Shown piece after piece: positions 22,964 through 57,092 of a stretch of 64,000 nucleotides of DNA. Position 1 is the stretch's first letter. Each line of letters starts with the position of its first letter. Location of the stretch: assembly GCF_019207025.1 (NCBI RefSeq), contig NZ_JAEEGC010000025.1:1-64000 (forward strand), given 5' to 3'. A program made the translations under genes and the position numbers. The notes below the pieces were generated by a model. It saw only the letters and a list, made by a program, of their open reading frames with translations, was not told where the DNA came from and made no database searches. Source of the stretch: Clostridium thailandense. Its GTDB lineage: Bacteria; Bacillota; Clostridia; Clostridiales; Clostridiaceae.

Positions 22964-22990
22964 TATACGAAATACTACAAATAGTAGCTC
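22964..22990 (-). promoter_or_regulatory. Island promoter motif, site 1
   Basis: Minus strand: GAGCTAC (22990-22984), 14-base spacer, CGTATA (22969-22964), for peptide 1. Part of a set of eleven with identical spacing, probably recognised by an ECF sigma factor. Confidence 0.75.
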
Positions 22991-23042
22991 AAAATTTGAT
23001 TAAAAATATATATTTATTTAAATTATATTAATATAAATTTTT

Positions 23043-23069
23043 GAGCTACATTTAAAAGTGCTTCGTATA
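23043..23069 (+). promoter_or_regulatory. Island promoter motif, site 2
   Basis: GAGCTAC (23043-23049), 14-base spacer containing AAAAGTG, CGTATA (23064-23069). It ends 47 bases before the start of peptide 2 and is divergent from site 1. Confidence 0.78.
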
Positions 23070-23116
23070 ATAAAATGCAAATAAGATTTTATATATTATA
23101 AAGGGGGGAATTTACT

Positions 23117-23383
23117 ATGTCGGAGGAAAAGAATGTCAACATAGGACCTGAAAACGCAAAAAAGCTGGCAGATCATGAATTAGACCAAATAGTTGGAGGC
23201 TCAATATATGAAAGAACAGACCTAGGAGAAGATGGTCATTATTATACTTCGGGATGTGACTATCATATGCCAAATGGTTGGTGTTCTCACTATTTGCGTG
23301 ATCCAAAGAAGGAACCTTATATTTTAGGAGATTACAAATATTATTGTATTGCCTGTCAGCATCTTGTAAAGACAAGACTTTAG
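23117..23383 (+). CDS. Double-glycine leader peptide precursor (peptide 2)
   Basis: An 88-residue precursor. The leader ends HELDQIVGG (about residue 28), a good C39 cleavage site; the core of about 60 residues is rich in Tyr, His, Gly and has four cysteines, two as YYCIACQ. A GGGG-containing ribosome-binding site precedes the ATG. It lies under island motif site 2 and is followed by a hairpin terminator and a STAS-gene relic, the same order as the intact module at 42637-43289, indicating common descent with peptide 5. Function of the mature peptide unknown. Confidence 0.78.
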   Translation: MSEEKNVNIGPENAKKLADHELDQIVGGSIYERTDLGEDGHYYTSGCDYHMPNGWCSHYLRDPKKEPYILGDYKYYCIACQHLVKTRL

Positions 23384-23423
23384 ACTTAACAAACATTTTA
23401 TGTATAAAATCTCAGACAGTATT

Positions 23424-23467
23424 AAAAGGCTGGGCTCTGTTTACATTATTTCAAAGCTTAGCTTTTT
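23424..23467 (+). terminator. Hairpin terminator after peptide 2
   Basis: aaaaggctgggct and aagcttagcttttt form an imperfect hairpin with a T-run. Loop sequence (tttacattattt) and arms resemble the terminator at 42911-42954 after peptide 5. Confidence 0.65.
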
Positions 23468-25312: not shown

Positions 25313-25339
25313 GAGCTACTATGCTTATTATTTCGTATA
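25313..25339 (+). promoter_or_regulatory. Island promoter motif, site 3
   Basis: TTGAGCTAC with GAGCTAC at 25313-25319, 14-base spacer, CGTATA at 25334-25339. It ends 53 bases before the radical SAM start and is the only promoter candidate between the preA terminator and that gene. Confidence 0.78.
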
Positions 25340-25392
25340 TATATACAAAAACAAAATAATCTACAATTTTTTATTGGAAAGAAGTGTTTTTT

Positions 25393-26562
25393 ATGAATAG
25401 TAATTTAAAAGAGAACTCTAATAATGAATATATTAGAAATTTAGTTAGAAGCTATATGAAATCCATTAGACTAAATATTACCAAAGGCAAAAGAAATAAG
25501 TTTAATTTTTCAAATGAAGTAATTTATACTGAAGCTAGAAAAGGTTTTTTAAATGGAAAATATATTGATAGACTTGCTATATTTATGAGAGGAACCGGAT
25601 GCAGCCAGGTTAAAGAGGTAGGTGGCTGTACATTTTGCGGTTTTTATAATGCTACTAATCTAGGTGAAAAAATTAGTGATAAGGATTATATAGAACAGAT
25701 TAAAAATACCATAAGCAATAAAAAAATTAATTTTTCTAAATATGGTATTGTTTGTTTGTATAACGATGGAAGCTTATTATGTGAAAAAGAAATAAATTTT
25801 AATGCAGTACTAAGTATTATTGATATATTGAACAATATTGAATCTGTAAAGAAAATTGTTATAGAATCTAGAGTTGAAAATATAACAAAAGAAAAATTAA
25901 CTAGAATAAGACAATCGACAAATAAAGAGTTTGATATAGCCGTTGGATTCGAATCTGCAAATCCATTAGTTAGAGATTTATGTATAAATAAAAGCTTTGA
26001 TTCAAGTACCTTTGAAGAAAAAATTATGATTTGCAATGAAAATAATATAAATCTTACACCTTTACTTATGGCGAAACCTCCATTTCTTACTGAAAAAGAA
26101 GCTATTGAAGACTTTGTTAACAGTTTACAATACCTCAATCAGTTTAATATAAAAAGAATAGATATGGAACTTCCTACTGTTGAAGAAAATACTTTAACAT
26201 ATAATATGTGGATAAAAAACATGTATACCCCTCTTAAATTATGGTCTGTAGTAGAAATATTAAAAAAGAAAGAAGAATTAGGGTTAAAAATACCTGTTCA
26301 CATAAGTCCTATGAATTATTCAGTTTCATCAAAGGCAAAAGCGTCGAATTGCGATTATTGTGACAATCATATGCTTAAACTATTTGAGAAATATAATGAA
26401 CATGGTGATGTTTCTATATTTGATAAAATTAATTGTACTTGTAAACAAGAATGGGAAAAGTTACTTATAACTAAAGCACCTGATGAAAATTTACCACAAT
26501 ATATAGAAAAAGTAGTTCTGAAATTAATGGAAGACGTAAAAGATTTGAAGATTATTGACTGA
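25393..26562 (+). CDS. Radical SAM protein, archaeosine-synthase (RaSEA/TIGR01210)-like
   Basis: A 389-residue radical S-adenosylmethionine protein. The cluster motif is RGTGCSQVKEVGGCTFCGF (Cys-x8-Cys-x2-Cys, near residues 67-79), the unusual spacing of the TIGR01210/Elp3-related RaSEA family, not the Cys-x3-Cys-x2-Cys of SPASM peptide-modifying enzymes. Further conserved blocks include NDGSLL, ESRVENIT and GFESANPLVRD. More cysteines cluster near the C-terminus (SNCDYCDNH, CTC). The ATG at 25393 is preferred to the GTG at 25384 because GGAAAG lies 11 bases ahead of it. Its island promoter ties it to the peptide regulon; whether it acts on peptides or on RNA is open. Confidence 0.8.
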   Translation: MNSNLKENSNNEYIRNLVRSYMKSIRLNITKGKRNKFNFSNEVIYTEARKGFLNGKYIDRLAIFMRGTGCSQVKEVGGCTFCGFYNATNLGEKISDKDYIEQIKNTISNKKINFSKYGIVCLYNDGSLLCEKEINFNAVLSIIDILNNIESVKKIVIESRVENITKEKLTRIRQSTNKEFDIAVGFESANPLVRDLCINKSFDSSTFEEKIMICNENNINLTPLLMAKPPFLTEKEAIEDFVNSLQYLNQFNIKRIDMELPTVEENTLTYNMWIKNMYTPLKLWSVVEILKKKEELGLKIPVHISPMNYSVSSKAKASNCDYCDNHMLKLFEKYNEHGDVSIFDKINCTCKQEWEKLLITKAPDENLPQYIEKVVLKLMEDVKDLKIID

Positions 26563-29560: not shown

Positions 29561-31120
29561 CTAATATATAATCTTATTCTTATTCTTAAATCGTTTTCTC
29601 GACCTTGGATCTATTTTCCTCCCCATATAATCAAGTAGAACTGTAAGTAGCCAGGAAATAACAAAGTATATTATTGCAACCATTATTAGTGGAAAGAAGG
29701 CATCAAAGGTACGACTTCTTATAATATCACCTGCTTTTGTTAAATCTTGCACTGCAATATATCCAACAATAGAGGTGCTCTTTAAAACAGAAATTACTTC
29801 TCCTTTGTAAACTGGGAGCACTTGCTTTATCGCTTGTGGCATAATAATATATAAAAAGGTTTCTATTTTTGTAAATCCTGCAGCAATGCCGGCCTCTTGC
29901 TGCCCTTTATCTATACTCAATATAGCAGTCCTAAACATCTCTGATGCATAGGCTGCAAAGTTCATACCAAAAGCAATAACAGCAGCAAGCACAGGATCTA
30001 TATTTACTGATGCAAAAAACACATAAAAAATCAACATCAAGAATACAAGCATTGGCGTGCCACGTAAAATTGCTATATAGACCGATGCAATATTGCTTAG
30101 AAAGCTATTACCTGACATTCTCATAAAACAAATTAACATTCCAAGAATAGTACCAAATATGACAGCAAGGCTTGCTATAATAATAGTAATCTTAAGACCA
30201 TCTATTATAAGCATGTACCTGTTTTCCAATATTATATTATTATAAAAACTATCTCCTATGCTTTTGATAAAGGACTGCTTGCCCACCTCTTGTTTAGTCT
30301 CAGCATCATACTTTGCAAGGTTCTCTTTTAGCACCACAATCCCAGCACCTAGTTTATAATAGGAATCCGAAAAATTTATCTTCTTTTTTCTTTCCTCAGT
30401 TATCACAAGCGTACTTGTTATCATATCAATTTTATTAGCAGAAACAGCCGCAATCAAACTGCCAAATTCCATATCCGAAAACACAAGTTTTTTTCCGAGT
30501 TCTGCTGCAAAACGCTGTGCCATCTCAACATCAAAGCCAACCATTTTTCCATCTTTTACTGTTGTAAAAGGTAGCCCTTTATCACTGACAATTCCAATCA
30601 CTAAAGTTCCGTTATTTTCTTTATTTACTATTTTCGGCATACTTTGTGAACCATCAGTTATCCATCTTTTTACCATATCATCATAAACACCATTGCTCTT
30701 AATCTTTTTTAAAAAACCATTAAAATCTTCTAGAAGCTTTGTATTATTTTTATTAAAACCCATTCCAATGGGGTTTTCATATATATTTTTTTCTAAAAAC
30801 TCCATGCTTTTATCATTTCTAAGTATTTCCATCATAGTCTCACGTGTATAAAATGCAGCGTCTATCTTTTTTGACTTTAATGCAACTACAACATCCGATA
30901 CACTTTTATATTGTAAAATCGTTGCATTAGGATAGTGTTTCATAGCATAATCATCCTGAACAGATCCTAGTAGTACCCCTATACGCTTGTTTTTTATATC
31001 TTCCGCTGTAGTAAATTTTTGTGAGTTATCTACTTGTGCCCCATAAACCTTTACTCTGTAGCTTATAAAGACAATAAAACATAACAAACCACAAAGTATA
31101 CCTGCTAAAATTTTTTTCAT
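29561..31120 (-). CDS. Amino-acid ABC transporter, fused binding protein-permease (second copy)
   Basis: A 519-residue fusion: signal/anchor helix (about 5-25), a solute-binding region (about 35-270) and a polar amino-acid permease domain (about 290-505; EAA loop [23 protein letters not shown] in part). The binding region is permuted: lobe II ([14 protein letters not shown] to DDMVKRWITDG) comes first and lobe I ([19 protein letters not shown] to KINFSDSYYKLG) follows, the reverse of the usual SBP_bac_3 order. It is about 80% like the gene at 32293-33885, a duplication flanking the ATPase. Likely imports a polar amino acid or derivative. Last gene of the operon. Confidence 0.85.
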   Translation of the reverse strand: MKKILAGILCGLLCFIVFISYRVKVYGAQVDNSQKFTTAEDIKNKRIGVLLGSVQDDYAMKHYPNATILQYKSVSDVVVALKSKKIDAAFYTRETMMEILRNDKSMEFLEKNIYENPIGMGFNKNNTKLLEDFNGFLKKIKSNGVYDDMVKRWITDGSQSMPKIVNKENNGTLVIGIVSDKGLPFTTVKDGKMVGFDVEMAQRFAAELGKKLVFSDMEFGSLIAAVSANKIDMITSTLVITEERKKKINFSDSYYKLGAGIVVLKENLAKYDAETKQEVGKQSFIKSIGDSFYNNIILENRYMLIIDGLKITIIIASLAVIFGTILGMLICFMRMSGNSFLSNIASVYIAILRGTPMLVFLMLIFYVFFASVNIDPVLAAVIAFGMNFAAYASEMFRTAILSIDKGQQEAGIAAGFTKIETFLYIIMPQAIKQVLPVYKGEVISVLKSTSIVGYIAVQDLTKAGDIIRSRTFDAFFPLIMVAIIYFVISWLLTVLLDYMGRKIDPRSRKRFKNKNKIIY

Positions 31121-31181
31121 AATAATTAATCTCTCCTTTCCTACATATTAGTGCAATACCTGTCCAAATTGAATATTTTCA

Positions 31182-32264
31182 TTATATACTTTTAATCTCC
31201 ATCGATATGCTATTTTTACCATTTATACACTCTTCCTTAATATTTTCTGTGAAATTATTAATAATTGCGCGGCTTATATCATCCACTCCTAGTTTATCTT
31301 CCAAAGGACTAGGTAACTCATTAATGCTGGTAACTTTTATAATTAATTTATCAATTTTTTCAAAATAATCAAAATCGAGTTCCATTGGTGGTTTATAAAT
31401 GGCAATAAGCTCCTCAGTAAGCAGAAGAATTTTTTGTACTAGCTTTGGTGATAAATATTTTTCACAGAAGCTTTTAATTTCACCATTCATACCATAAAAG
31501 TCAAAACTATCACTATTGATATCATAATGGAAGCTTCTTATTCTATTAATAAAGGTTTTTGTTTTTTCTTTTTGCGGATTTTGAAATATTTCCTCTGGCG
31601 AACCCTCTTCATATATAACGCCTTCATCCATATAAAAAATCCTGTTTGAAACATTCCTTGCAAATTCCATTTCATGAGTTACAATAGCCATAGTCATGCC
31701 ATCCTTGGCCAACCTCCTAATTACAGATAAAACTTCACTTACCATTGTAGGATCAAGGGCTGAAGTTGGCTCATCAAATAGTATTATCTCCGGTTCCATA
31801 GCAAGGCATCTTGCAATAGCAATTCTTTGTTTCTGTCCCCCTGAAAGCTCATCAGGATAACTGTCCGCTTTTTCTTCAAGCCCTACCATTTTGAGTAATT
31901 CAAAACCTCTCCTTTTTGCCTCATCCTTGCTTTTGCCAAGCAATTTAATAGGTCCCAAGGTAAGGTTATTAAGAACAGAAAGATGTTCGTATAGATTAAA
32001 GCTTTGAAAAACCATACCCATTTTCTGTCTTAGTTTAGGTACATTTGCTTCCTTAGAAAGAATATCAACTCCATCAATCTCAATACTACCACCAGCTGGT
32101 ACCTCCAGTAAGTTAAGACACCTCAAAAATGTACTTTTTCCTGTTCCTGAAGGGCCAATGATTGATATAACCTCACCTTTTCTTATCTGACAGTTAACGT
32201 CCTTTAAAACCTCTAAATCTCCATATTTTTTCGACATATGTGATACATTTATCATATTACTCAC
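31182..32264 (-). CDS. Amino-acid ABC transporter ATPase with C-terminal extension
   Basis: A 360-residue ATPase. Residues 1-245 are a standard GlnQ/ArtP-type ATPase: Walker [10 protein letters not shown], signature LSGGQKQR, Walker [14 protein letters not shown] and switch THEMEF, all intact. Usual members end near residue 245; here about 110 more residues follow. Within them [13 protein letters not shown] and [15 protein letters not shown] loosely resemble the N-box helix region of RsbW-like anti-sigma kinases, without a clear ATP lid, so any relation is tentative. It lies between two paralogous binding protein-permease genes and probably serves both. Confidence 0.85.
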
Positions 32265-32292
32265 CGCACCTCTCTTACTTATTTCTATATAC

Positions 32293-33949: not shown

Positions 33950-33976
33950 TATACGAAACACTTTTAAAAGTAGCTC
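33950..33976 (-). promoter_or_regulatory. Island promoter motif, site 4
   Basis: Minus strand: GAGCTAC (33976-33970), 14-base spacer with AAAAGTG, CGTATA (33955-33950), for the transporter operon. Divergent from site 5. Confidence 0.78.
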
Positions 33977-34050: not shown

Positions 34051-34077
34051 GAGCTACTATTTTATTTCCTTCGTATA
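34051..34077 (+). promoter_or_regulatory. Island promoter motif, site 5
   Basis: GAGCTAC (34051-34057), 14 bases, CGTATA (34072-34077), 44 bases before peptide 3. The sequence between sites 4 and 5 is related to that between sites 7 and 8. Confidence 0.78.
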
Positions 34078-34121: not shown

Positions 34122-34382
34122 ATGATAAAGGAAAAAGAAAAATTTTCTAACTCAAACAATCAAGATTTTGATAAGTTGTCAGATGATACTCTAAATTTTG
34201 CGACTGGTGGAACTACTTATTGGCTCTGCGGAAATGATGGATATAGCGATGGCTGTCTAAACTGTGAATGGTTTTATCTAGATGATACAACTGATGTTAA
34301 TAAGATTTTTTACTACTGTATTTCCACAACACCCAATACATTATTAAAAGAGGAGTTAAAAACAAGTCCAAGAAAATATTAA
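34122..34382 (+). CDS. Double-glycine leader peptide precursor (peptide 3)
   Basis: An 86-residue precursor with leader ending DKLSDDTLNFATGG (about residue 30) and a core with four cysteines (WLCGNDGYSDGCLNCEW and YYCIST), rich in aromatic and acidic residues. A TAGGAGG site precedes its ATG. It is under island motif site 5 and convergent with peptide 4 across a shared bidirectional terminator. No relative recognised beyond the leader class; the core resembles peptide 2 in having YYC. Confidence 0.78.
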   Translation: MIKEKEKFSNSNNQDFDKLSDDTLNFATGGTTYWLCGNDGYSDGCLNCEWFYLDDTTDVNKIFYYCISTTPNTLLKEELKTSPRKY

Positions 34383-43910: not shown

Positions 43911-43951
43911 AATAATTCTCCATTCTTTTTGATTAAATTAAATATATACAC

Positions 43952-46263: not shown

Positions 46264-48376
46264 AATTTACACTACCTTTTTTAATTTTCAATGCAAGCAT
46301 TGTAATATCGTCTGCTTGCTCTGCCCCCTCTGCAAATTTATCAATTTCATCTTTTATATACATTAACAGTTCATTTAAGGTACACTCTTTGCATTTATTG
46401 ATATCTGAAAGTAACTTTTTATCGCTAAACAAGTCATTATTTCTATTTACCGCTTCTGTTACACCATCGGTATACATATATAAAAGATCGCCCTGCTCTA
46501 AAATAATCTTATCCTCTTTATAGGCTATATCCTCCATACCTGCTAAAACAAAACCAGGTTTAGTTTTTAACCATTGAAATTCCCCATTGGCTTTTTTAAT
46601 TAGTGGTGGATTATGACCTGCATTTACATAAGTAAATTCTCCTGTACTAACCTCAAAAACACCCATAAAGGCAGTTACAAACATTGCTGCCGCATTATTT
46701 TCACAAAGCTGATTATTAACTGTTTCAAATACATACTTTGGAGTTTTAGCGTTCTGTGCATTGTTTTTAATAAGTGTTTTTGCAATCACCATAAATAAAG
46801 CAGCTGGTACTCCTTTACCAGATACATCAGCAATAACCACTGCTAAATGATCCTCATCTATAAGAAAGAAATCATAAAAATCTCCACCAACTTCTTTTGC
46901 CGGAAGCATAGTTGCATAAATTTCAAATTCCTCTCTATCTGGAAATGCAGGAAAAATACACGGTAACATACTTCCTTGAATTTTTGTTGCTACATCAAGT
47001 TCTGCACCTATTCTCTCTTTTTCAGCTGTTATTTTTGAAATATTTGCTATATATGTCTTCAAATCAATGGTCATTTTATTAAAGGCTGAGCCTAATTCTG
47101 CTATCTCATCTTTTCCCATAATGTCAATTTTAGTATCAAGCTCTCCTTCACCAATTTTTACAACCTTTGAAAGCAATAATTTTATAGGATTGGTAATGGT
47201 TTTTGATAGAAGATAAGAAAACACTAAAATAACCATGGCGGAAACTGCTAATATAATAACTAAGCGAACTAAAACATTACTAAGGGTTTTAGTAATATAT
47301 GCTTGTGCCTGCGCTGTATATTGATCTATTTTCTTTTGAGTATCCACTGCTGGTTTAATAATTTCATCAGTCTCAACAACAACAGCCAAAGACCACTTTG
47401 TTGTTGGAAGTTTATAATATGCTATATAACAAAGCTTACCATCTACATGTGCAGTTGTTAAGCCTTCAGTACCATTTATAATTTCACTAAGGGCTTTAGA
47501 ATAGTCCCCTGTGGCATCTTTTATTGACTTTGTCGTGTCAATCTTCTTATTATTAGGATGAGCTATAATATTACCTTTGTTATCAAGTAAAAATGCATAT
47601 CCTGTTTCACCAATTTTCATTGATATTATATCATCCTGCATACTTTTAAGGGTAATATCAGTAGCTAAAACTCCTCGCAGTTTTCCATTTTCATCATAAA
47701 AGCTTTTAGCATTAGTAACACAAATTGTACCAAAAGAGTCTAAATACGTATCTACCCATATAGGCTCCCCATTACTTTCCATTGCACTTTTATACCATCC
47801 ACGCTCTCTTGGATCATAATTAGGATCATATGTATTGTATTTTGAATACCGGTAGGAAATACCTGTATTTGTACCTAAATATACATTATCTAAAATAGAA
47901 CTGTTCTTAAATATAGGCGCAATCATATATTCAGCGTTACTTATAAGAGATAGTTCTTTGTCAAGCTCAGGTGTATGTAAAACTCCAGGTGGCAGCATAT
48001 ATTTTGAGCTTTCCACTCCCATAACTGTGTCAGAAACCATTGGTAATTTTCTACCTATAAAGTTGTTTTCATTTTTATAAAGAGCTGTCATATACTCAGA
48101 CATAGAAGTAGTCTCACTTTGCACTTTAGATAGTACTGCGTCTGACTTTAACGCTTGTTCTTTTACAATTTTAGTAATATACTCCTCAGCTTGCTTTTTA
48201 AGTGCTTCTTTTGACCTATCAGAAGAATTTATTCCAAGCTGTGTATTTGCATCTGTTGAATATTTCGTTAAATTCAGCATCTCTGTATATGAAACAACTG
48301 CAATGAAAAACAGTGAAGAAAGAGACACAATTAAAATAATGACAAGTATTTTAGTTCCAATTTTAAGATTCCGCAT
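46253..48376 (-). CDS. SpoIIE/RsbU-type PP2C phosphatase with dCache and HAMP
   Basis: A 707-residue sensor phosphatase: membrane helix (about 10-30), extracellular double-Cache domain (about 85-345; YDPNYDPRERGWYKSAM), second helix (about 365-390), HAMP, short coiled coil, and a C-terminal PP2C-type phosphatase (about 470-700) with metal aspartates in EVGGDFYDFF and VIADVSGKGVPAALFM. It should dephosphorylate the STAS proteins on sensing an external signal. AAGGGGG precedes its ATG. Second gene of the operon, 16 bases after the ligase gene. Confidence 0.9.
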   Translation of the reverse strand: MRNLKIGTKILVIILIVSLSSLFFIAVVSYTEMLNLTKYSTDANTQLGINSSDRSKEALKKQAEEYITKIVKEQALKSDAVLSKVQSETTSMSEYMTALYKNENNFIGRKLPMVSDTVMGVESSKYMLPPGVLHTPELDKELSLISNAEYMIAPIFKNSSILDNVYLGTNTGISYRYSKYNTYDPNYDPRERGWYKSAMESNGEPIWVDTYLDSFGTICVTNAKSFYDENGKLRGVLATDITLKSMQDDIISMKIGETGYAFLLDNKGNIIAHPNNKKIDTTKSIKDATGDYSKALSEIINGTEGLTTAHVDGKLCYIAYYKLPTTKWSLAVVVETDEIIKPAVDTQKKIDQYTAQAQAYITKTLSNVLVRLVIILAVSAMVILVFSYLLSKTITNPIKLLLSKVVKIGEGELDTKIDIMGKDEIAELGSAFNKMTIDLKTYIANISKITAEKERIGAELDVATKIQGSMLPCIFPAFPDREEFEIYATMLPAKEVGGDFYDFFLIDEDHLAVVIADVSGKGVPAALFMVIAKTLIKNNAQNAKTPKYVFETVNNQLCENNAAAMFVTAFMGVFEVSTGEFTYVNAGHNPPLIKKANGEFQWLKTKPGFVLAGMEDIAYKEDKIILEQGDLLYMYTDGVTEAVNRNNDLFSDKKLLSDINKCKECTLNELLMYIKDEIDKFAEGAEQADDITMLALKIKKGSVNYGD

Positions 48377-48392
48377 GGTTTATGCACCCCCT

Positions 48393-49331
48393 TTACAACT
48401 CATTTTCAACAATTATCTCTACTAAGTTATTAAGGGATATGCCATATTTTTCAGCAGCCTGAGGAAAAAAACTGTCATCAGGCGTTAACCCTGGTACTGC
48501 GTTTATTTCAATAAAATAAGGAATTTTTGTTTTCTCCTCAAGCATATAATCAATTCGCGCATAATTTTTTGCATTAAAAATTTTAAATACATCAATTGAA
48601 ACTTTTTCAAGTTCCTTTTTTAATTGAGCTGATATTTCTGCTTCTTTTGCAGTGACTCTTTTATTACACAAAACAAGTTCCTCTTGCTCGCCAATTAAAT
48701 TTTCACATAATAAGGTTGGTAGTGCTGTTGGTACTTTTTCTATTTCTAGTATTGAAGTTGTTACAAATTTTCCCTTTATAAAACGTTCAATTATTATTTC
48801 ATCGTCAAACTTAAAGGTTTGTGCTATTTTTTCGTAATCCTCTCTTGACTGTATATATTCAATTCCATAACTTCCACCTTGGGTTATAGCTTTTGCCACA
48901 ACTGGATAAGGCATAACTTTTTCTATTTCTTCTAATAATTCCTCTTTTGAAGTGGAAAAAAACTCCTGTTTATTCACATAAATAAACTCAGGTGTTCTGA
49001 TACCATGGCAAGCACAAACTTTTTTACATATACATTTATCGTTAATTATAGCTGCAGCTGTAGCCTTAGAACCAGTGTAAGGCAACCTTAAATGCTCACA
49101 AATAGATTGCATGGTTCCATCACCATGATATTTGCCCTGTACCGCTATAAAAACTAATTGCGGCCTACTTTTTTGTAAGTTCGTGTATATGCTTTCATCG
49201 AATTCTAGTAAACTTACAACATGTCCATTTTCCTCAAGCGACTTTGCTATATACCCTGCATTTTGTGTAGAAATAGCACTTTCACTTGAAGTTCCTCCAT
49301 GTACTACTGCAATATTCATCTTTCTATTCAT
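48393..49331 (-). CDS. D-alanine-D-alanine ligase-like ATP-grasp enzyme
   Basis: A 312-residue ATP-grasp protein of the Ddl family. Visible: NIAVVHGGTSSESAIST (N-terminal loop), KYHGDGTMQSICEHL where Ddl has GEDGTIQG, PVVAKAITQGGSYGIEY and FIEINAVPGLTPDDSFFP. The substitutions suggest a paralogue with different substrates, perhaps another amino acid or a dipeptide, rather than the housekeeping enzyme. It is the first gene under island motif site 9, ahead of signalling genes, an odd place for cell-wall synthesis; self-protection is one possibility. Confidence 0.8.
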   Translation of the reverse strand: MNRKMNIAVVHGGTSSESAISTQNAGYIAKSLEENGHVVSLLEFDESIYTNLQKSRPQLVFIAVQGKYHGDGTMQSICEHLRLPYTGSKATAAAIINDKCICKKVCACHGIRTPEFIYVNKQEFFSTSKEELLEEIEKVMPYPVVAKAITQGGSYGIEYIQSREDYEKIAQTFKFDDEIIIERFIKGKFVTTSILEIEKVPTALPTLLCENLIGEQEELVLCNKRVTAKEAEISAQLKKELEKVSIDVFKIFNAKNYARIDYMLEEKTKIPYFIEINAVPGLTPDDSFFPQAAEKYGISLNNLVEIIVENEL

Positions 49332-49377: not shown

Positions 49378-49404
49378 TATACGAATAGTTTTTAAAAGTA
49401 GCTC
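49378..49404 (-). promoter_or_regulatory. Island promoter motif, site 9
   Basis: Minus strand: GAGCTAC (49404-49398), 14 bases, CGTATA (49383-49378), 46 bases before the ligase start and 18 bases after the sigma factor stop. It gives the ligase/SpoIIE/MFS/RsbW/STAS operon its own start. Confidence 0.78.
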
Positions 49405-49421: not shown

Positions 49422-49931
49422 TTATGCAGCTATAATCTCTCGAAGTTTTTTTAATCCTCTTATGTAAATTGAAGAAACAGTACTTTCGTTTATATCCATT
49501 CGTTTTGATATCTCACGGTTAGTAAGGCCTTCAAAATGTTTTAATACAATAATAAGTCTTGTCCTATTATCAATTTTAGTTAATGCCTTATATAATTCTT
49601 TTAGCATTTCATCCTCAATAAGCTTACACTGCTCCTCAAAATCTATTGAAGGATCTACATTATTTTCTTCATCATCTATTGATATATGTATTTTTCTTAA
49701 CCTATAATAATCAATTAATGTATTTCTAACAATAGTAAATATCCATGTATTAAAATTTGCTTTTTTTGCATCAAAGCGAAATACATTCTCAGCAACCTTC
49801 AGAAAAATATCACTTACAATATCTTCAGTCTGTTCTTTACTTAATATACGATAAAATACATAATTATACACTCTGGGAAAATAATACTCATATATATTTT
49901 CAAGATTGTCTGAGTGAGAAAATTCATTCAT
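49422..49931 (-). CDS. ECF-type RNA polymerase sigma factor
   Basis: A 169-residue sigma-70 family protein with only regions 2 and 4, the ECF layout. Region 2 (about 8-75) includes YEYYFPRVYNYVFYRI, DIVSDIFLKVAEN and NFNTWIFTIVRNTLIDYYR; region 4 (about 112-165) includes FEGLTNREISKRMDINEST. AAAGGAGG precedes its ATG. No cognate anti-sigma membrane protein is adjacent. It is the only sigma gene in the window and sits among the eleven GAGCTAC-N14-CGTATA sites, whose layout is what an ECF factor would read, so it is the prime candidate. It lacks the motif itself. Confidence 0.93.
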   Translation of the reverse strand: MNEFSHSDNLENIYEYYFPRVYNYVFYRILSKEQTEDIVSDIFLKVAENVFRFDAKKANFNTWIFTIVRNTLIDYYRLRKIHISIDDEENNVDPSIDFEEQCKLIEDEMLKELYKALTKIDNRTRLIIVLKHFEGLTNREISKRMDINESTVSSIYIRGLKKLREIIAA

Positions 49932-50080: not shown

Positions 50081-50110
50081 ATGTATATTGTACTTTGGTA
50101 CAATATACAT
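50081..50110. promoter_or_regulatory. Perfect palindrome upstream of the sigma gene
   Basis: atgtatattgtac (50081-50093) and gtacaatatacat (50098-50110) are perfect 13-base arms around four bases, without a T-run, about 150 bases upstream of the sigma factor start in a 390-base gene-free stretch (49932-50321). The symmetry and lack of a T-run suit an operator for a dimeric regulator; a bidirectional terminator is less likely. Confidence 0.5.
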
Positions 50111-50321: not shown

Positions 50322-50579
50322 TTATACTATTACGTCCATATCCCAACACGACGGACCTTTGTCACTTCCTCCAGAAACTGCATCAAGCTCATCATCTGAT
50401 AGTGCACCACTTTTCGGTTGTAGTTTAGCAAATATTTCTTTAGCTTCCTCTTCGCTAATTGACATATTATTTCTACTTGCAAGAACTAAAATTTCTTCAA
50501 CACTTTTACACTTTACAGCTTCCTTTACAATACTTTCTTTGTTTTCACCTAAATTTTCTAATAATTTTTGAATTTCCAT
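50322..50579 (-). CDS. Nif11-type leader peptide precursor (peptide 6)
   Basis: An 85-residue precursor with a full Nif11-like leader (about 1-70: IQKLLENLGENKESIVKEA, VEEILVLASRNN) ending ALSDDELDAVSGG, then a core of only 14 residues, SDKGPSCWDMDVIV, with one Cys. Nif11 leaders are the classic substrates of NHLM-type exporters. AGGAGG precedes the ATG. It has island motif site 10 as its own promoter, 59 bases upstream, and follows the export operon. Confidence 0.88.
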   Translation of the reverse strand: MEIQKLLENLGENKESIVKEAVKCKSVEEILVLASRNNMSISEEEAKEIFAKLQPKSGALSDDELDAVSGGSDKGPSCWDMDVIV

Positions 50580-50680: not shown

Positions 50681-51634
50681 TTACTTAATCTCAAGCATAT
50701 AAAAATTTTGTGTTTTTTTACTTTCAATAAATGGATTTAAAAATCCATTTACAAGACTAATCATTTCCTTATTTACATCAAGCACCATATAAGAAATCTT
50801 CTTATAAATATTTTGTAAAAAGAATTGTTCCATAAATTCCTGAAATGGAAGTAGAAATACACCTGTTCTCTTATATTTCAAAGCCACTGATAGCTGTTGA
50901 AACACTACTGTCTTTCCATCACTTGTTGTAACAATACAATAGGCAATCGGAATATCATTTTTTACAGCTATAAAACTTAATTCTGGTACAAGCCTATCGA
51001 CTGGATTGTCTATATAATGTTTAAGATTTAATTCTTTTGGAAACTCTTCTTCTATTCTTTCCTTCAAATTATCTATAAGTCTCCCAGCCTTTGCAAATGA
51101 AACTGCACTAAAACCATGTCTTTCACTTCTAGCTATAAGCTTTTCTCCTTTTTTCTCCATAAACTCATGCCATATATTCTTAGTTTTTTCATCCCTAGTA
51201 CACCTAAGAATTTTAGAAGTTGTTTTAATTTTAAAGCCACAATTAACCAACAATTTTTCTGCAATTATACTCTCCCTACTGCCCGCTTCAACTAAGTCTT
51301 CCTTTTCTTTATCATTAATTACAATTCGAGCCAATATACCTAAATCCCCTTGTTTCTTTGCATAATTAATAGCAGCTACTAATAATTCTTTACCAATACC
51401 CTTTCCGCGTTCTTCCTCTCTAACTAATAAATAATCAAGTTTAATATATTTAGCCTCACTTTTATTTAGAACACAAAAACCTAGTATATCACTATCTTCA
51501 CCATCGGTATAAGCAGCAAGTAAACTTGTACCATTTATGCTCACTGCATTTCGCACATGATAATCCGAAAGAAGTGTTGAAAAAGTCCTGCATTTTAACA
51601 TATACGTTAAAAATGATATTTCTTTTATTTCCAT
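50681..51634 (-). CDS. GNAT-family N-acetyltransferase, two-domain
   Basis: A 317-residue protein. The first 150 residues are a GNAT domain with the acetyl-CoA loop EERGKGIGKELLVAA (about 78-92); the second half (LSFIAVKNDIPIAYCIVTTS) resembles another, weaker acetyltransferase unit. Its place at the end of the export operon, after peptide 7, makes acetylation or acyl transfer to exported peptides, or protection of the host, plausible but unproven. The ATG at 51634 is chosen over a GTG four codons upstream that overlaps the AGGAG site. Confidence 0.78.
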   Translation of the reverse strand: MEIKEISFLTYMLKCRTFSTLLSDYHVRNAVSINGTSLLAAYTDGEDSDILGFCVLNKSEAKYIKLDYLLVREEERGKGIGKELLVAAINYAKKQGDLGILARIVINDKEKEDLVEAGSRESIIAEKLLVNCGFKIKTTSKILRCTRDEKTKNIWHEFMEKKGEKLIARSERHGFSAVSFAKAGRLIDNLKERIEEEFPKELNLKHYIDNPVDRLVPELSFIAVKNDIPIAYCIVTTSDGKTVVFQQLSVALKYKRTGVFLLPFQEFMEQFFLQNIYKKISYMVLDVNKEMISLVNGFLNPFIESKKTQNFYMLEIK

Positions 51635-51713
51635 GCTTATCTCCACTCCTATTTAAACTCTACAATGCCTTAATATAATCCTATTTATTTAATTCCTTTT
51701 TTATTTTACTTCA

Positions 51714-52011: not shown

Positions 52012-54195
52012 TTAATCCACCGTTTGTCTAACTGCCATCTCATAAAACAATCCCTTTTTCTCCATCAGCTTATCATAGTCTCCTTCCTCTACAACTTTCC
52101 CATTTTTCAGAACTATTATTCTATTACAATGCCTTATAGTTGAAAGTCTATGCGCTATAACAAGTCTTGTACATTTCAATTCCGAAATACTATCTGATAC
52201 CTTCTTCTGAGTAATATTATCAAGAGCTGATGTAGCTTCATCAAAAAACAGTATTTTAGGTTTTGATACAATGGCTCTTGCTATTAAAAGCCTTTGTTTT
52301 TGCCCTCCAGATATACCTCCGCTTCCTTCACTTAGCATGGTATGCATCCCCATAGGCATAGCTTTAATATCTTCCTCCATACCGGCCATTCTTGCTGCTT
52401 CCCAGGCATCATCAAGTGTTTTCCAAGGTGCGGTTACAATAATATTAGAAAAAATATCTCCTGAAAAAAGTTTTCCATTTTGAAGATCAACCCCTATACA
52501 TTGCCTAACTGAACGTACATCTAGTTTCTCTATATCTTGTCCATCATAATAAATAGCTCCTGTTTCAGCTTTTTCAAAACCAAGCAGTAACCTCATTAAC
52601 GTAGACTTACCACATCCAGTTTTTCCAACTACCGCCACATATTCCCCTGGACGAATCTTAAGACTTAGATTATCAATTATAGCTGGTCCATCTTTGTCAT
52701 ATCTAAAAGTAAGATTATTTATTTCTATACTCCCTGAAAGTGCTGTTACAATCTTTCTACTCTCAGTTAGCTCTGGAACAGTATCAAGTATTGGTTTAAC
52801 CATCTCAATAATAGGTTTTATTGTGGCAGCAGTTAAAGCTACTCCTGAAAGTGACATTATAGCACCACTGACAGACCCATAAGCAGTATTAAAGGCTATA
52901 TAATCAGCTACTGAAAGCTTATTTACTACTGCAGAGTAATATAAAAATATACTTCCACCAAAACTAATTGCTCCAGAAATTGTAGCATTAAGTCTTAAAA
53001 GCATAGGTGGAGAATATCTTAATCTTCCTTCCTGTTTATATACTTCAGCCCATTTTGCAAAAGCTCTTTTCTCAGCTCCTGCAAGCTTTATTTTTTGTAT
53101 TCCGCTAAATAATGCAAAGACCATTCCTGATAATTTTGCTGATATCTTCATTTGATTTCTTGAAACCTTAAGCTGCACAAAGGTAGTTAGAACAGAGAAA
53201 ATCAAGGAAATTAATATTATTAACATGCCCGGTGCTACAAGTGCTGGTGCAAAGCTTGCCATTTGAGCAATATAAACTAGTGAAAAAACAGCTGTCAATC
53301 CTGTTGTAAGTACTGCATCTGAAATTGTGTTGCAGAGTGAATTTATGTTCATTAAACGGTTGCTAAGTTCTCCAGCAGAGTAATCTCTAAAAAATGTTGC
53401 TGGTAATGAAAATAATCTCATCATAGCTGCAGATTCAATAGACATATTTAGCTTATCTCTAAATTTCCCAAGCACTATACTTTTTATTACTCCAAATAAA
53501 GTGCTAGCTATAACTGCACCCATTAACAGTGCTGCCACAGGAAATACATCACTCTTTGTACCCGAAGGTATTACACTTTCATAAATTTGCTTATTCATGT
53601 AAGGCAAAAATAATCCTAGTAATGAAACTAAAAGACTGCTTCCTAAAATAAGCACTATATCAGATAAATTTATACTTTTTAGCATGTAAATCCCCAAATC
53701 AACAATAGACAGTTTCTTAGCTGGAAATGGTCTATAAAATACAAATGCATCTGTATTTATATCTTTTGCTGTTTTTTTATTTACTTTAACTACCTTATTT
53801 GTTTTTGGGTCAGTATACTCATAACCCAAAATTTTTGATGGTTTAAGTACTATTGTTTTACCATCAATTGTGCTTCCAAGCATTATACCAATTGCATCCT
53901 TCCACCAAAAGCCAACAAGTTCCACTCTTCTTCGCATCACTCCAGATGGACGAAGCATGTACTCCATTTGTGCATTTATATCTTTAATGCTCTCTGGAAC
54001 TTCTGGTATAACAGCTCCAAGTAATTTTAATACCTCTGAAATAGCAACTTTTGCTTCTTCTTCACTAACAGCATCACTAGTGCTATGTGACTTCTGTTTA
54101 ATTATATCTGATAGGTGGCAGAAGGCACCTTCGAATAACTCCTGATCCATCTCTCGTCGTTGTTTTATTTGGTCATCAAAAATGTTAAAACTCAT
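52012..54195 (-). CDS. NHLM-type bacteriocin ABC exporter, ATP-binding/permease protein
   Basis: A 727-residue half-exporter. After an N-terminal domain of about 150 residues (no C39 peptidase) come the six-helix membrane domain (about 165-455) and an ATPase with Walker A VGKTGCGKST, signature ISGGQKQR and Walker B ILFFDEATSALD. It matches the second, peptidase-less ABC protein of NHLM systems, which partners the peptidase-bearing one encoded directly upstream. Both ATPases are intact, so a heterodimer with two active sites is expected. Confidence 0.88.
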   Translation of the reverse strand: MSFNIFDDQIKQRREMDQELFEGAFCHLSDIIKQKSHSTSDAVSEEEAKVAISEVLKLLGAVIPEVPESIKDINAQMEYMLRPSGVMRRRVELVGFWWKDAIGIMLGSTIDGKTIVLKPSKILGYEYTDPKTNKVVKVNKKTAKDINTDAFVFYRPFPAKKLSIVDLGIYMLKSINLSDIVLILGSSLLVSLLGLFLPYMNKQIYESVIPSGTKSDVFPVAALLMGAVIASTLFGVIKSIVLGKFRDKLNMSIESAAMMRLFSLPATFFRDYSAGELSNRLMNINSLCNTISDAVLTTGLTAVFSLVYIAQMASFAPALVAPGMLIILISLIFSVLTTFVQLKVSRNQMKISAKLSGMVFALFSGIQKIKLAGAEKRAFAKWAEVYKQEGRLRYSPPMLLRLNATISGAISFGGSIFLYYSAVVNKLSVADYIAFNTAYGSVSGAIMSLSGVALTAATIKPIIEMVKPILDTVPELTESRKIVTALSGSIEINNLTFRYDKDGPAIIDNLSLKIRPGEYVAVVGKTGCGKSTLMRLLLGFEKAETGAIYYDGQDIEKLDVRSVRQCIGVDLQNGKLFSGDIFSNIIVTAPWKTLDDAWEAARMAGMEEDIKAMPMGMHTMLSEGSGGISGGQKQRLLIARAIVSKPKILFFDEATSALDNITQKKVSDSISELKCTRLVIAHRLSTIRHCNRIIVLKNGKVVEEGDYDKLMEKKGLFYEMAVRQTVD

Positions 54196-54252
54196 TTAGA
54201 CACCACCATTTTCCTTATTATATATTTTTTAAATCTTTGTAATTTTAAACTC

Positions 54253-56418
54253 TTATTCACTGCACACCAACTCTTTATACAACCCATTATTTGCATAAAG
54301 CTCATCATGAGTACCACGCTCTTGCACTTCTCCATTTTTAAGTACTACAATCTCATCACAATCACGAATAGTAGAAAGTCTATGAGCAATAACAATACAG
54401 GTTGCACCGATATTACGGATGTTTTTCATAACCTGCTCCTCAGTTTTCGCATCTAATGCTGATGTAGCTTCATCAAGAATAATAATAGTAGGTTCCTGAG
54501 ATAATACCCTTGCTATTTCAAAACGCTGGCGCTGTCCTCCGGAAAAATTCTTACCGCCTTCTTTAATCTGATGATTGTAACCCCCAGCTCTAGATACAAT
54601 TGTTTCATGTATATCTGCATCTCTAGCAGCCATAATTACTGCAAAATCTTCAATGGAATTATCCCACATTCGAATATTGCTTGCAACAGTATCTTCAAAT
54701 AAAGTTATATCCTGATCCACCATAGCAACTGAACTTTTATAAGTATACTCATCAATTTGCTCTTTTTTCTTACCATCAAATAGAATCTCTCCCTCCCATA
54801 CAGGATAAAGTCCAGTAATAAGCTTTGCTAAAGTGGATTTACCACTACCACTGCTTCCTACAAAGGCCACCGTAGAACCTGGTTTAATAGTTATTGAAAA
54901 ATCCTTGATAAGTGGTTTATCAAGTTTACTATATCCAAAGGTAACATTTTTTATTTCAAGCAAACCTGATAATTTACCTGACTCATCAGCTTCTTTTAAT
55001 TGCTGCTTCTCTTGATTACAAACATCAGCTTCAAAGCTTTCTGTTTTATAATTCATAACATCTTCTACACGTTCCATGGATGAACGCATCATTATAAAGG
55101 ATTGATTTACCGACATAAGCTGATTCACTGGTGATAAAAAAGATCCTAAAAAACCTTGAAAAGCAATAAGCATACCAATAGTAAATTTACCATCCAGTAT
55201 CATATAAACTCCTGCCATTAGTACTAGTATATTGCTGCATTGCTGTAATACACTAGGAATGGTACCAACATAATAGTTAAATTTGGATATTTGAGTCTGT
55301 GCATTTTGTTGATTAGCATAGAAACCCGCCCAACGCTCAAAAAAACCATTTTCTGCACCACTTGCTTTAATAGTCTCTATCATCTCAATTCCTGCCATAG
55401 TTGCAGCTGTGAGCTTTCCACCATCTCTCATTGCAGCTCTGCTAAAGTTCATTTGCTTTTTGCTTGAATATCTCATAACAAAAAGATTTACAAATGCAGT
55501 TAAAACTCCAATAATAGTAAGCATCAAGCTATAGTTAATCATTATGGTTAAGTAAAATATAAGTAAGCATATATTCATAAATACTGGTGCCAGCTTACGA
55601 ATTAAGGAGCTTGCTATTTGCTCGTTTGAATATTGTCTTGATACTATATCTCCTGCATATCGCTGGGAAAAAAATTCTATTGGTAACCTAAGCACATGCC
55701 ACATAAATTCTGCGTTGGCAACAATTGCAAACTTTCCCTCAATCTTAAGCCAGCATATACCTTCAATTGCTGAAACAATAGCTGAGACAATTAGTGTAAT
55801 TATCATTGCTATAATAAAAGAAATAAACCACTCTGGATTTTTACCTGTTATAATGTTATCCATAAATATTTTAGAATATAAAGGTGTTACAATTCCAACT
55901 ACGGACACTAAAATTCCTGTCAAAACAACGAAAATAAATTGTGGTAATGTACCCTTCAGTCTTTTTTTAGCAAATTCCCATACACTTTTAGGCTTGCCTT
56001 CAGAAACAAATTCACTAGTTTTTTCGAATTTTAAAACAATTCCCGTAAAAGCCTTATCAAACTCATCATTAGAAACCTCTACTATTCCTCTTGCAGGATC
56101 ATTAAGTACTACCTTATCCTTTTTAAAACCACTAAGCACAACAAAGTGATTAAAATTCCAATGTATAATTGCTGGCAGTGTGATATTTTTAAGTGCTTCT
56201 GGCTCCATGCGGTAGCCTTCTGCTTTAAGGCCATAGGATCTTGCTGCCATTACTACATTTTTAGCACTAGAACCATCACGTGATACTCCACAATCAGAAC
56301 GAACCTGCTCAAGTGGCAACCATTTACCATGATATGCGAGAATCATACATAATGAAGCTGCTCCACATTCTAAAGCCTCCATTTGCATAACAACAGGCAC
56401 TTTTGCTATTTTTCCCAT
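54253..56418 (-). CDS. NHLM-type bacteriocin exporter with C39 leader peptidase
   Basis: A 721-residue peptidase-containing ABC transporter. The N-terminal C39 peptidase has Cys18 (ALECGAASLCMIL), His91 (HWNFNHFVVLSG) and Asp107 (LNDPARG); a six-helix membrane domain (about 160-440) and an ATPase (Walker A VGSSGSGKST, signature FSGGQRQR, Walker B IIILDEATSALD) follow. It should cut leaders after Gly-Gly and export the cores. It lies 22 bases after the adaptor gene and is the natural exporter for peptides 1-7, though only peptide 7 shares its operon. Confidence 0.93.
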   Translation of the reverse strand: MGKIAKVPVVMQMEALECGAASLCMILAYHGKWLPLEQVRSDCGVSRDGSSAKNVVMAARSYGLKAEGYRMEPEALKNITLPAIIHWNFNHFVVLSGFKKDKVVLNDPARGIVEVSNDEFDKAFTGIVLKFEKTSEFVSEGKPKSVWEFAKKRLKGTLPQFIFVVLTGILVSVVGIVTPLYSKIFMDNIITGKNPEWFISFIIAMIITLIVSAIVSAIEGICWLKIEGKFAIVANAEFMWHVLRLPIEFFSQRYAGDIVSRQYSNEQIASSLIRKLAPVFMNICLLIFYLTIMINYSLMLTIIGVLTAFVNLFVMRYSSKKQMNFSRAAMRDGGKLTAATMAGIEMIETIKASGAENGFFERWAGFYANQQNAQTQISKFNYYVGTIPSVLQQCSNILVLMAGVYMILDGKFTIGMLIAFQGFLGSFLSPVNQLMSVNQSFIMMRSSMERVEDVMNYKTESFEADVCNQEKQQLKEADESGKLSGLLEIKNVTFGYSKLDKPLIKDFSITIKPGSTVAFVGSSGSGKSTLAKLITGLYPVWEGEILFDGKKKEQIDEYTYKSSVAMVDQDITLFEDTVASNIRMWDNSIEDFAVIMAARDADIHETIVSRAGGYNHQIKEGGKNFSGGQRQRFEIARVLSQEPTIIILDEATSALDAKTEEQVMKNIRNIGATCIVIAHRLSTIRDCDEIVVLKNGEVQERGTHDELYANNGLYKELVCSE

Positions 56419-56440
56419 TCTTTAACTCTCTCCCCTCTAA

Positions 56441-57028
56441 TTATGAATCTTTATTTATCAGCAATTCATAGGGCTTCCTCTCTTTTGTTATGATTAGCAC
56501 ATTACATCTTGAACCACTTGTCAAAAGTACTTTTTCACCCTTTATATTGGACCACTTCAAGGATTTTCCATTTTTACCAAGCACCATTTTAACTTCTATC
56601 ACATTTCCATCTGGAATAATTCCTTGTAAATATTTCAAACTTCCAAAAGTCTGGATTATTTGATTTTCTGTTACAGGAACCTTGCCAATGCTCTCAATCT
56701 TGCCATATATATATCCATATTCAGACCTTGATGCATAGTCTGGTGATACCTGCACCTCCATACCCTCTTCAAGTCTTTTGGATGTTCCAAGTGGTACGTA
56801 ACAATAAACTTTATCTGCATTACTTGCAGCTGAATAAGCTACCCCACTTATTTTCACCGTTTCAGGAATACTTCCAGTAAATGCCCATATCATAACTCCA
56901 AATAATAATGCAAAAAGTGCTCCTAATATGCACCATACACTTATATTTGTGACTTTTAAATAATCATTCAACTGCTCTGGCGAAGAAATACGTTCAATCG
57001 AGCTCTTTCTAAACAAATTATTCTCCAT
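56441..57028 (-). CDS. NHLM-type secretion adaptor (HlyD-like)
   Basis: A 195-residue membrane-fusion-type protein. RKSSIERISSPEQLNDYLKV then a single membrane helix (about 25-48) is the hallmark of the NHLM secretion protein family; the rest is a short barrel-sandwich-like domain, smaller than the several hundred residues usual in that family because the coiled-coil part is missing. That may suit a cell with no outer membrane. I choose the ATG at 57028, after GGGAGG; a longer frame to 57115 would run through the promoter motif at 57066-57092. First gene of the export operon. Confidence 0.87.
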   Translation of the reverse strand: MENNLFRKSSIERISSPEQLNDYLKVTNISVWCILGALFALLFGVMIWAFTGSIPETVKISGVAYSAASNADKVYCYVPLGTSKRLEEGMEVQVSPDYASRSEYGYIYGKIESIGKVPVTENQIIQTFGSLKYLQGIIPDGNVIEVKMVLGKNGKSLKWSNIKGEKVLLTSGSRCNVLIITKERKPYELLINKDS

Positions 57029-57065
57029 TTTAAAACCTCCCTTAATTTTATAGTCTTTTATGTTT

Positions 57066-57092
57066 AATACGAAAGATTGCAAAAAGTAGCTC
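57066..57092 (-). promoter_or_regulatory. Island promoter motif, site 11 (variant)
   Basis: Minus strand: GAGCTAC (57092-57086), 14 bases, CGTATT (57071-57066), 37 bases before the adaptor ATG. It drives the export operon. Confidence 0.74.

What the first reader, a model, noticed from the sequence alone, without database searches (positions are those of the whole stretch)
22964..57092. Eleven-site promoter motif GAGCTAC-N14-CGTATA defines one regulon across 34 kb
Sites at 22964, 23043, 25313, 33950, 34051, 34776, 42483, 42637, 49378, 50639 and 57066 share TTGAGCTAC, exactly 14 bases, and CGTATA (three carry CGTATT, GAGCTAT or GAGCTGC changes), always oriented towards and 35-160 bases before a start codon. 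Two-block layout, fixed spacer and the CGT in the second block match ECF sigma promoters. The only sigma gene nearby, 49422-49931, is an ECF factor within the island. This would tie six separate peptide units, a radical SAM enzyme, a transporter, a hydroxylase operon, a signalling operon and an exporter into one programme.
Basis: partly seen in the sequence, partly recalled or inferred. Interest (0 to 1): 0.95.

Follow-up and report, generated by a model that had tools for sequence, protein, structure and literature searches.

The report
Dedicated sigma regulon for exported peptides
One two-part promoter-like sequence stands before eleven scattered genes for small leader-bearing peptides and before a peptide exporter in this bacterium, and it is very likely read by one dedicated sigma factor, several of whose relatives beside such exporters in other bacteria come with the same sequence or an equally spaced variant, so that peptide supply and export would be switched on together.

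Summary
All eleven sites exist: 8 exact, 3 deviating as described, each 35-160 nt before a start codon. The 6.5 Mb genome has 15 exact sites, the reversed pattern none, and 205 other genomes of the family have 1. Of the seven exact sites outside the island, three precede intact leader peptides and three apparent remnants, so the programme is genome-wide. The sigma gene 49422-49931 is the likely reader. A genome of another family with a 55% identical sigma has 7 exact sites, before peptides and the NHLP exporter. A 51% relative has a one-mismatch site before a peptide-sigma-exporter operon. In one further genus, exporter-linked relatives have TGTAATA-N15-CGTATT (same spacing and -10 block, other -35 block), only within 2.6 kb of the sigma gene. 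Against this, three other exporter-linked relatives (G275, G315, G420) show neither motif within one mismatch in the stretches scanned. Nine of 24 sigma-bearing genomes have an NHLP transporter; in all 9 a copy lies within 9 kb of the sigma gene. Binding and transcription are inferred; how the sigma is held inactive is open. New variant of a known kind.

The parts
22964..22990 (-). promoter-like site, exact; before peptide gene 22510-22875
22510..22875 (-). 121-aa peptide with double-glycine-type leader (ENELGQITGG)
   Evidence: leader read by eye, no family above cut-off
23043..23069 (+). promoter-like site, exact; before peptide gene 23117-23383
23117..23383 (+). 88-aa Cys-containing peptide, leader ...HELDQIVGG
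   Evidence: TIGR04149 E 0.003, below cut-off
25313..25339 (+). promoter-like site, exact; before radical SAM gene
25384..26562 (+). radical SAM protein (TIGR01210, RaSEA-like, 197 bits, just under cut-off 212)
33950..33976 (-). promoter-like site, exact; before transporter genes 33885 to 29561
29561..33885 (-). amino-acid-type ABC transporter genes (two permease/binding-protein fusions flanking an ATPase); assignment by eye
34051..34077 (+). promoter-like site, exact; before peptide gene 34122-34382
34122..34382 (+). 86-aa Cys-containing peptide, leader LSDDTLNFATGG
34776..34802 (-). promoter-like site, two mismatches (weakest); before peptide gene 34484-34735
34484..34735 (-). 83-aa Cys-rich peptide, leader LSDNQLEKITGG
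42483..42509 (-). promoter-like site, exact; 160 nt before the operon 42322 to 34807
34807..42322 (-). likely operon: protein with weak HATPase similarity, aminotransferase, GNAT protein, acyl carrier protein, and three genes of molybdenum-hydroxylase type (the last three by eye)
42637..42663 (+). promoter-like site, one mismatch; before peptide gene 42699-42902
42699..42902 (+). 67-aa peptide, leader LSDEQLEHIAAG
49378..49404 (-). promoter-like site, exact; between the sigma gene and the signalling operon
42987..49331 (-). likely signalling operon: D-Ala-D-Ala-ligase-like ATP-grasp, Cache-HAMP-SpoIIE phosphatase, MFS protein, HATPase_c_2 (RsbW-like), two STAS proteins
   Evidence: one STAS scanned; second STAS 94% identical to it
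49422..49931 (-). ECF-type sigma factor, 169 aa, regions 2 and 4 only; proposed reader of all sites
50081..50110 (-). perfect 13-nt palindrome in the sigma leader, a possible regulator site; partly kept upstream of a sigma remnant in L069
50639..50665 (-). promoter-like site, exact; before Nif11-like peptide 50322-50579
50322..50579 (-). 85-aa Nif11-like leader peptide (TIGR03798 E 7e-4, below cut-off), LSDDELDAVSGG
50681..51646 (-). GNAT-like protein; a similar GNAT plus Nif11-like pair lies behind a one-mismatch site on contig C90
51714..51974 (-). 86-aa small protein DFS..KDKL / LSDDDLDSISAA / Cys-rich; relatives near sigma genes in other genomes
52012..54195 (-). NHLP export ABC transporter 2 (TIGR03797, 740 bits, cut-off 709)
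54253..56418 (-). NHLP export ABC transporter 1 with peptidase (TIGR03796, 947 bits, cut-off 853)
56441..57028 (-). short NHLP HlyD-type subunit (TIGR03794, 101 bits, below cut-off 156)
57066..57092 (-). promoter-like site, one mismatch; 37 nt before the exporter operon

Best explanation
The repeated element GAGCTAC-N14-CGTATA is very likely the promoter of the ECF-type sigma factor encoded at 49422-49931, which would switch on, all at once, a genome-wide set of leader-bearing peptide genes, their NHLP exporter and some accessory operons. GAGCTAC (with a T before it) would be the -35 block and CGTATA the -10 block. Shown: the sites, their position, the gene types behind them, their confinement within the family to the genome with this sigma, the same motif beside a 55% identical sigma in another family, and a changed -35 block at the same spacing beside some more diverged relatives. 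Inferred: binding by this sigma, transcription from the sites, export of the peptides through the NHLP transporter with cleavage behind the GG, and any effect of the peptides. Not known: the signal, and how the sigma is kept inactive.
For: (1) 15 exact sites in G000, 0 in the reversed control, 0 in 6 congeners, 1 in all 205 other family genomes. (2) Of the seven exact sites outside the window, three precede intact GG-type peptide genes (C29, C67, C90:42091), three apparent remnants (C90:38314, C90:78162, C196) and one a 13-codon frame (C90:42001). (3) Among 206 family genomes the best other sigma match at E 1e-22 is 39% identical, and none of them has more than one exact site. (4) G378, another family of the class, sigma 55% identical: 7 exact sites, 5 before GG-type peptides, 1 before the exporter operon, 1 before a membrane gene with a 51714-type small protein behind it. 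(5) G348, sigma 51% over 156 aa: a one-mismatch site before small peptide-sigma-HlyD-ABC1-ABC2. (6) In four genomes of one further genus all 9 exact TGTAATA-N15-CGTATT sites lie within 2.6 kb of the sigma gene, and in G424 both such sites lie just before it; the 20 other genomes searched had 5 hits, none beside a sigma relative, and the reversed control had 6 in all 25. TGAGC-17-CGTAT and TGTAA-17-CGTAT share spacing and -10 block. (7) Between the window and the G378 stretch, matches at 1e-6 are sigma, exporter, two small proteins and generic ATPase/Cache matches; no other regulator. (8) B. subtilis SigW reads TGAAAC-N16,17-CGTA (PMC2375139, passages seen), the same geometry, and SigW is the second-best solved relative.
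Against: No binding or transcript data. The -35 block lacks the AAC named as an ECF hallmark (PMC8103513, passage seen). No anti-sigma gene was identified in the window. The sigma gene has no site directly before it in G000 or G378. Three exporter-linked relatives (G275 with a shortened sigma ORF, G315, G420) show neither motif within one mismatch in the stretches scanned; G275 has a three-mismatch look-alike. One-mismatch numbers are at chance level: G378 has 8 of them (15 matches with the exact ones) against 7 for the reversed control, and G348 has 5 against 5; 4 of the 8 and 4 of the 5 do not precede peptides. Several G000 sites are recent copies of one another. The palindrome, STAS/HATPase and MalT-like genes could add or replace control layers.
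Confidence: 0.88

Rival explanations
1. The element is an activator site (for instance of the MalT-like LuxR regulator 26753-29323, whose paralogue also lies by a site on contig C90) and RNA polymerase uses a separate housekeeping promoter downstream.
For: MalT-like regulators lie beside sites in the window and, by sequence start, on C90.
Against: No such regulator is shared with the G378 or G348 stretches compared; CGTATA lies so close to the ribosome-binding site at some genes (for example 57066 and 34051) that a further -10 box and start would hardly fit; I saw no conserved second -10 in the position-wise information of 21 G000 or 12 of 15 G378 sites.
Confidence: 0.06
2. The element is an alternative-sigma promoter, but read by another sigma factor of the genome (seven weaker matches on other contigs).
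For: Seven further ECF-like genes exist in G000, the best 33% identical.
Against: Congeners G001 and G002 have ECF-like genes 36-38% identical to the query but no site; exporter linkage was seen for the 49422 family.
Confidence: 0.04
3. The sites are copies of one duplicating leader-peptide cassette; the sharing reflects descent and says little about control.
For: Three 27-mers are identical and several spacers are alike.
Against: 13 distinct 27-mers among 15; sites stand before unrelated genes (radical SAM, transporter, SpoIIE operon, exporter); the same consensus occurs in G378 with different spacers.
Confidence: 0.02

Closest known systems
ECF sigma factor regulons, B. subtilis SigW type (TGAAAC-N16,17-CGTA)
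   Same: Two-domain sigma, same block spacing, CGTAT -10 block; second-best solved-structure match.
   Different: -35 block TGAGCTAC instead of TGAAAC; regulon made largely of peptide precursors and their exporter; no anti-sigma recognised in the window.
NHLP (nitrile hydratase / Nif11 leader) peptide export systems
   Same: ABC1 and ABC2 exceed the curated cut-offs of TIGR03796 and TIGR03797; Nif11-like leader weakly matched.
   Different: Linked to a dedicated sigma factor, with precursor genes dispersed as single units; the paper on the precursor family (PMC2887384, term search only) has no occurrence of 'sigma' in its held main text.
TcdR/UviA-type group V sigma factors of clostridia (toxin and bacteriocin genes)
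   Same: A sigma factor that serves secreted peptide or protein genes in clostridia, gene mostly next to its targets (PMC4885068, passages seen).
   Different: Different family by the matches obtained here (ECF models) and many dispersed targets; direct comparison with TcdR-type proteins not run.
ECF sigma control of lantibiotic clusters in actinomycetes (MibX-type; recalled, from no call)
   Same: ECF sigma governs a peptide natural product.
   Different: As recalled, there one cluster; here many unlinked precursors, another exporter class and another phylum.

Membership tests
ECF sigma factor | only regions 2 and 4, short linker (<50 aa) | tested here: met
   region 2 at 13-79, region 4 within 111-165 of 169 aa; TIGR02937 106 bits over cut-off 43; hallmark list seen in PMC8103513
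ECF sigma factor | -10 block with CGT | tested here: met
   CGT at all 11 sites, CGTATA at all exact ones
ECF sigma factor | -35 block with AAC | tested here: not met
   GAGCTAC in G000 and G378; TGTAATA by some more distant relatives. The source lists it as a hallmark from a small early set, so I keep 'ECF-type' as a description of the protein
ECF sigma factor | co-transcribed anti-sigma factor | tested here: inconclusive
   none recognised in the window; in G424 a 315-aa protein, close relative named DUF4367-containing, overlaps the sigma gene end; candidates 51714 and 43952 untested
ECF sigma factor | positive autoregulation | tested here: inconclusive
   a site leads the sigma gene or operon in G348 and G424; in the window only read-through from 50639 is possible, no terminator found
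NHLP export system | ABC1 with peptidase, ABC2, HlyD-type subunit | tested here: met
   ABC1 947/853 bits, ABC2 740/709; HlyD-type 101/156, a short form below cut-off
NHLP export system | precursors with Nif11 or nitrile-hydratase leader | tested here: inconclusive
   50322-50579 matches TIGR03798 at E 7e-4 below cut-off; the other peptides have shorter GG-type leaders read by eye
TcdR/UviA group V sigma | sequence relation to TcdR/UviA/BotR | not tested
   no such protein was fetched or compared

The most novel reading that the evidence does not exclude
A class-wide family of sigma factors is dedicated to NHLP exporters and is held in check by a small export-tagged anti-sigma (51714-51974 and relatives), so that working exporters pump the inhibitor out and release the sigma, as FlgM does for the flagellar sigma. 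Peptide genes would then be made only when the export machine stands.
Probability: 0.12. Interest if true: 0.9.

Novelty: new variant of a known kind. Interest (0 to 1): 0.7.

Why it matters
NHLP-type precursors are usually sought next to an exporter or a modification enzyme. A promoter that tags them would find unlinked precursors anywhere in a genome, here including one inside a prophage, and would give a handle for switching a silent peptide programme on. The change of -35 block between sigma subfamilies also offers a natural set for learning which sigma residues read that block.

Tried and rejected
Tried without result: sigma protein against 72,556 plasmid records, no match; extended motif in viral contigs, one hit inside an ORF, taken as chance; the sigma-leader palindrome genome-wide, no second exact copy and counts at up to 3 mismatches below the control; profile comparison of the 51714-type proteins and of the G519-type proteins with the DUF4367-type protein behind the G424 sigma, not significant (E 0.1 and 0.54), and of the first two with each other, weak (E 0.0068, probability 5.6%), so the anti-sigma idea is kept as speculation only; gapped-pair search in G420, no pair shared by more than two regions. 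One genome-contig scan with the sigma gave 5 loci, none with a GAGCTAC site within one mismatch; the best, L069, holds only a 39-residue stretch at 74%. A third protein search and Pfam gave no anti-sigma family for the small proteins.

Considered and rejected: partner switching by the STAS/HATPase genes as the established control of this sigma. They are behind a site in the window and near the G420 sigma, but by eye not in the G378, G348, G275, G519, G536 or G417 stretches that I listed.

Rows dropped or set aside: 5 of 10 one-mismatch sites in G000 (C95, C112, C124, C190, C198) were judged chance from context; 3 of 15 G378 sites were left out of the position-wise count; 25 of 28 proteins went into the family alignment; the loci of minus-strand sites were read in the wrong orientation and were redone; the G348 peptide row was in a wrong frame and was not used.
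Full report
WHAT WAS CHECKED. The correct common core is T-GAGCTAC-N14-CGTATA; the TTG start holds for 7 of 11. The 14-base gap is exclusive in the window (8 exact pairs at 14, none at 6-13 or 15-23). Each site points at a start codon 35-160 nt away. Behind them lie six peptide genes with GG- or AG-ended leaders, a radical SAM gene, a transporter, a long operon ending in molybdenum-hydroxylase-type genes, the SpoIIE/STAS signalling operon and the NHLP exporter.

GENOME-WIDE. The source genome (6.48 Mb, 261 contigs, contamination estimate 5.85%) has 15 exact sites; the pattern read backwards has none. Eight are in the window and seven elsewhere. Of these seven, three precede intact GG-type peptides (C29, C67, C90:42091). 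Three precede apparent remnants: C90:78162 (MSKENLIPDDH, then stop), C196 (27 codons that resemble the start of the 50322 peptide) and C90:38314 (3 codons). One, C90:42001, precedes a 13-codon frame of no clear kind. Of ten one-mismatch sites five fit: 42637 and 57066 of the window, C90:38073 before a GNAT plus Nif11-like peptide pair, C90:78085 and C193 before peptides; five look like chance. So eleven intact peptide genes stand directly behind a site (six in the window, five outside), one more behind a GNAT gene. The C29 peptide lies between tail-fibre-like and endolysin genes of a prophage. At up to two mismatches the genome gives 91 matches against 76 in the control, so such sites count only with context, as 34776 does.

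THE PROTEIN. 49422-49931 encodes 169 aa with sigma regions 2 and 4, TIGR02937 at 106 bits; a profile of its family finds an ECF structure first and SigW second. It is the only match on its contig at E 1e-5, and the next in the genome is 33% identical. The protein database gave 27 other relatives at E 1e-15 or better (28 rows with the query itself), nine of them 66 to 80% identical.

CO-OCCURRENCE. In the family, 206 genomes, the best other match at E 1e-22 is 39% identical, and besides G000 only one exact site exists, inside a long ORF. A record titled Clostridiaceae (L069) holds a truncated 74% stretch of the sigma and no site. A class-wide draw of 391 genomes gave 24, G000 included, with a relative at E 1e-30 or better. 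Of 12 genomes then searched for the motif at up to one mismatch, only G378 has exact sites. G378 (another family, sigma 55%) has 7: five before GG-type peptides, one about 290 nt before its NHLP HlyD gene, one before a membrane gene followed by a relative of 51714-51974. It has 8 one-mismatch sites, 4 before peptides (one with an insertion-like ORF of 457 aa between) and 4 not; the reversed control gave 7 matches at up to one mismatch, so this class alone proves nothing. G348 (sigma 51%) has five one-mismatch hits against five in the control; one leads small peptide, sigma, HlyD, ABC1, ABC2. G275, of the same genus, has the same gene order with a shortened sigma ORF and only a three-mismatch look-alike at the same place. 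Position by position the 21 G000 and 12 of the 15 G378 sites share the blocks and an A/T run after CGTATA; I saw no second -10-like box.

THE -35 SHIFT. In G519, G536 and G417, whose sigma relatives are more distant but still beside NHLP genes, I searched upstream regions for shared gapped pairs. TGTAATA-N15-CGTATT came up in three regions of G536 and, in part, two of G519; in G417 it was not among the top pairs but is visible in two regions. A search of 25 genomes found 9 exact sites in the four genomes of that genus (3, 3, 2, 1), all within 2.6 kb of the sigma gene, before the peptide, the binding-protein/exporter operon and a gene that I read as radical SAM. In G424 (by a protein record, Anaerosphaera aminiphila), which has no NHLP transporter at the threshold, both sites lie just before its sigma gene. 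The remaining 20 genomes, 14 of them with a sigma relative, have 5 hits, none beside that relative; the reversed control had 6 in the 25. TGAGC-17-CGTAT and TGTAA-17-CGTAT have equal spacing; the -35 block differs, as region 4 does between these proteins. This is what a sigma promoter should do and an activator site need not. It is not general: G315 and G420, also exporter-linked, show neither motif within one mismatch in the stretches scanned.

EXPORTER LINKAGE. Of the 24 sigma-bearing genomes and 6 congeners, 9 have ABC1 of the NHLP type. In all 9 a sigma relative lies within 9 kb of an ABC1 gene (1.0, 1.1, 1.9, 3.4, 4.3, 4.6, 4.7, 4.8 and 8.7 kb by the coordinates); the linked G315 copy is below the family's cut-off (827 of 853 bits). 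Fifteen genomes with a relative have no ABC1 at that threshold, and four further ABC1 copies in G378, G315 and G420 lie elsewhere; in the three of these that I listed, no sigma match lies nearby. Linkage is common but not obligatory in either direction, and the 24 were chosen for having the sigma.

MECHANISM. Likely chain: a signal frees or raises the sigma; RNA polymerase with it starts at the sites; peptides with GG-type leaders and the NHLP exporter appear together; the exporter's peptidase cuts the leaders and the often Cys-rich cores leave the cell. Only the first link's DNA side is supported here. The peptides could be bacteriocins, signals or metal-binding peptides; nothing here decides. 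Control of the sigma is open. Candidates are the palindrome 50081-50110 in its leader (no second exact copy in the genome, partly kept in L069), the SpoIIE/HATPase/STAS operon, and the small protein 51714-51974. The latter's relatives stand near sigma genes in G378, G275 and, by the same short motif, G348 and G420. The export-coupled anti-sigma reading rests on that position and a weak profile match only.

LITERATURE. Searches in the held library for Nif11, NHLP or RiPP terms with sigma-factor terms listed no paper whose title or abstract start describes such a regulon; most subscription papers are not held. I saw passages of PMC2375139, PMC8103513, PMC4885068 and PMC2887384, and listings only for the rest.

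LIMITS. No experiment; genome names are hidden; several sites are recent copies; leader motifs were read by eye and reach no curated cut-off; operon limits are inferred from spacing and strand.

Noticed in passing
L033:8084-8414 (G000:C29:24083): A prophage carries one of the regulon peptides, with an exact site, between tail-fibre-like and endolysin genes: a phage gene seemingly wired to a host sigma factor.
   Followed up: partly
window 50081-50110: Perfect 13-nt palindrome around TATTGTAC-N4-GTACAATA in the sigma leader, no second exact copy in the genome; a near copy stands before a truncated sigma reading frame in L069.
   Followed up: partly
L031:6315, L031:10002, L032:8163, L035:11996: Four exact promoter-like sites stand before broken or very short frames: signs of rapid birth and loss of peptide genes while promoters stay intact.
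   Followed up: partly
window 26753-29323 and L031:6822-9398: Two MalT-like LuxR regulator genes (the second judged by its sequence start), each near a site, on different contigs.
   Followed up: no
window 42987-43289 and 43608-43910: Two STAS genes 94% identical, a recent duplication in the signalling operon.
   Followed up: no
L146:17563-19863 (G420): Small peptide, sigma relative, a 407-aa protein that looks HATPase-like by eye and a STAS-like gene in a row near an NHLP exporter; a second G420 locus (L152) also has a STAS-like gene directly before HlyD.
   Followed up: partly
L108:13548-13955, L109:9954-10328, L174:853-1227: Behind the distant sigma genes an overlapping gene encodes a 124-135 aa protein with an ELTEEELxYxAAG stretch and a zinc-ribbon-like Cys end.
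   Followed up: partly
L097:15642-17221 (G378): A 457-aa insertion-like ORF, with a like copy at L096:15240-16613, lies between a one-mismatch promoter-like site and its likely peptide gene.
   Followed up: no
window 56441-57028: The HlyD-type subunit is only 195 aa and matches mainly the last third of the NHLP HlyD profile; G348 and G378 have about 300-aa forms.
   Followed up: no
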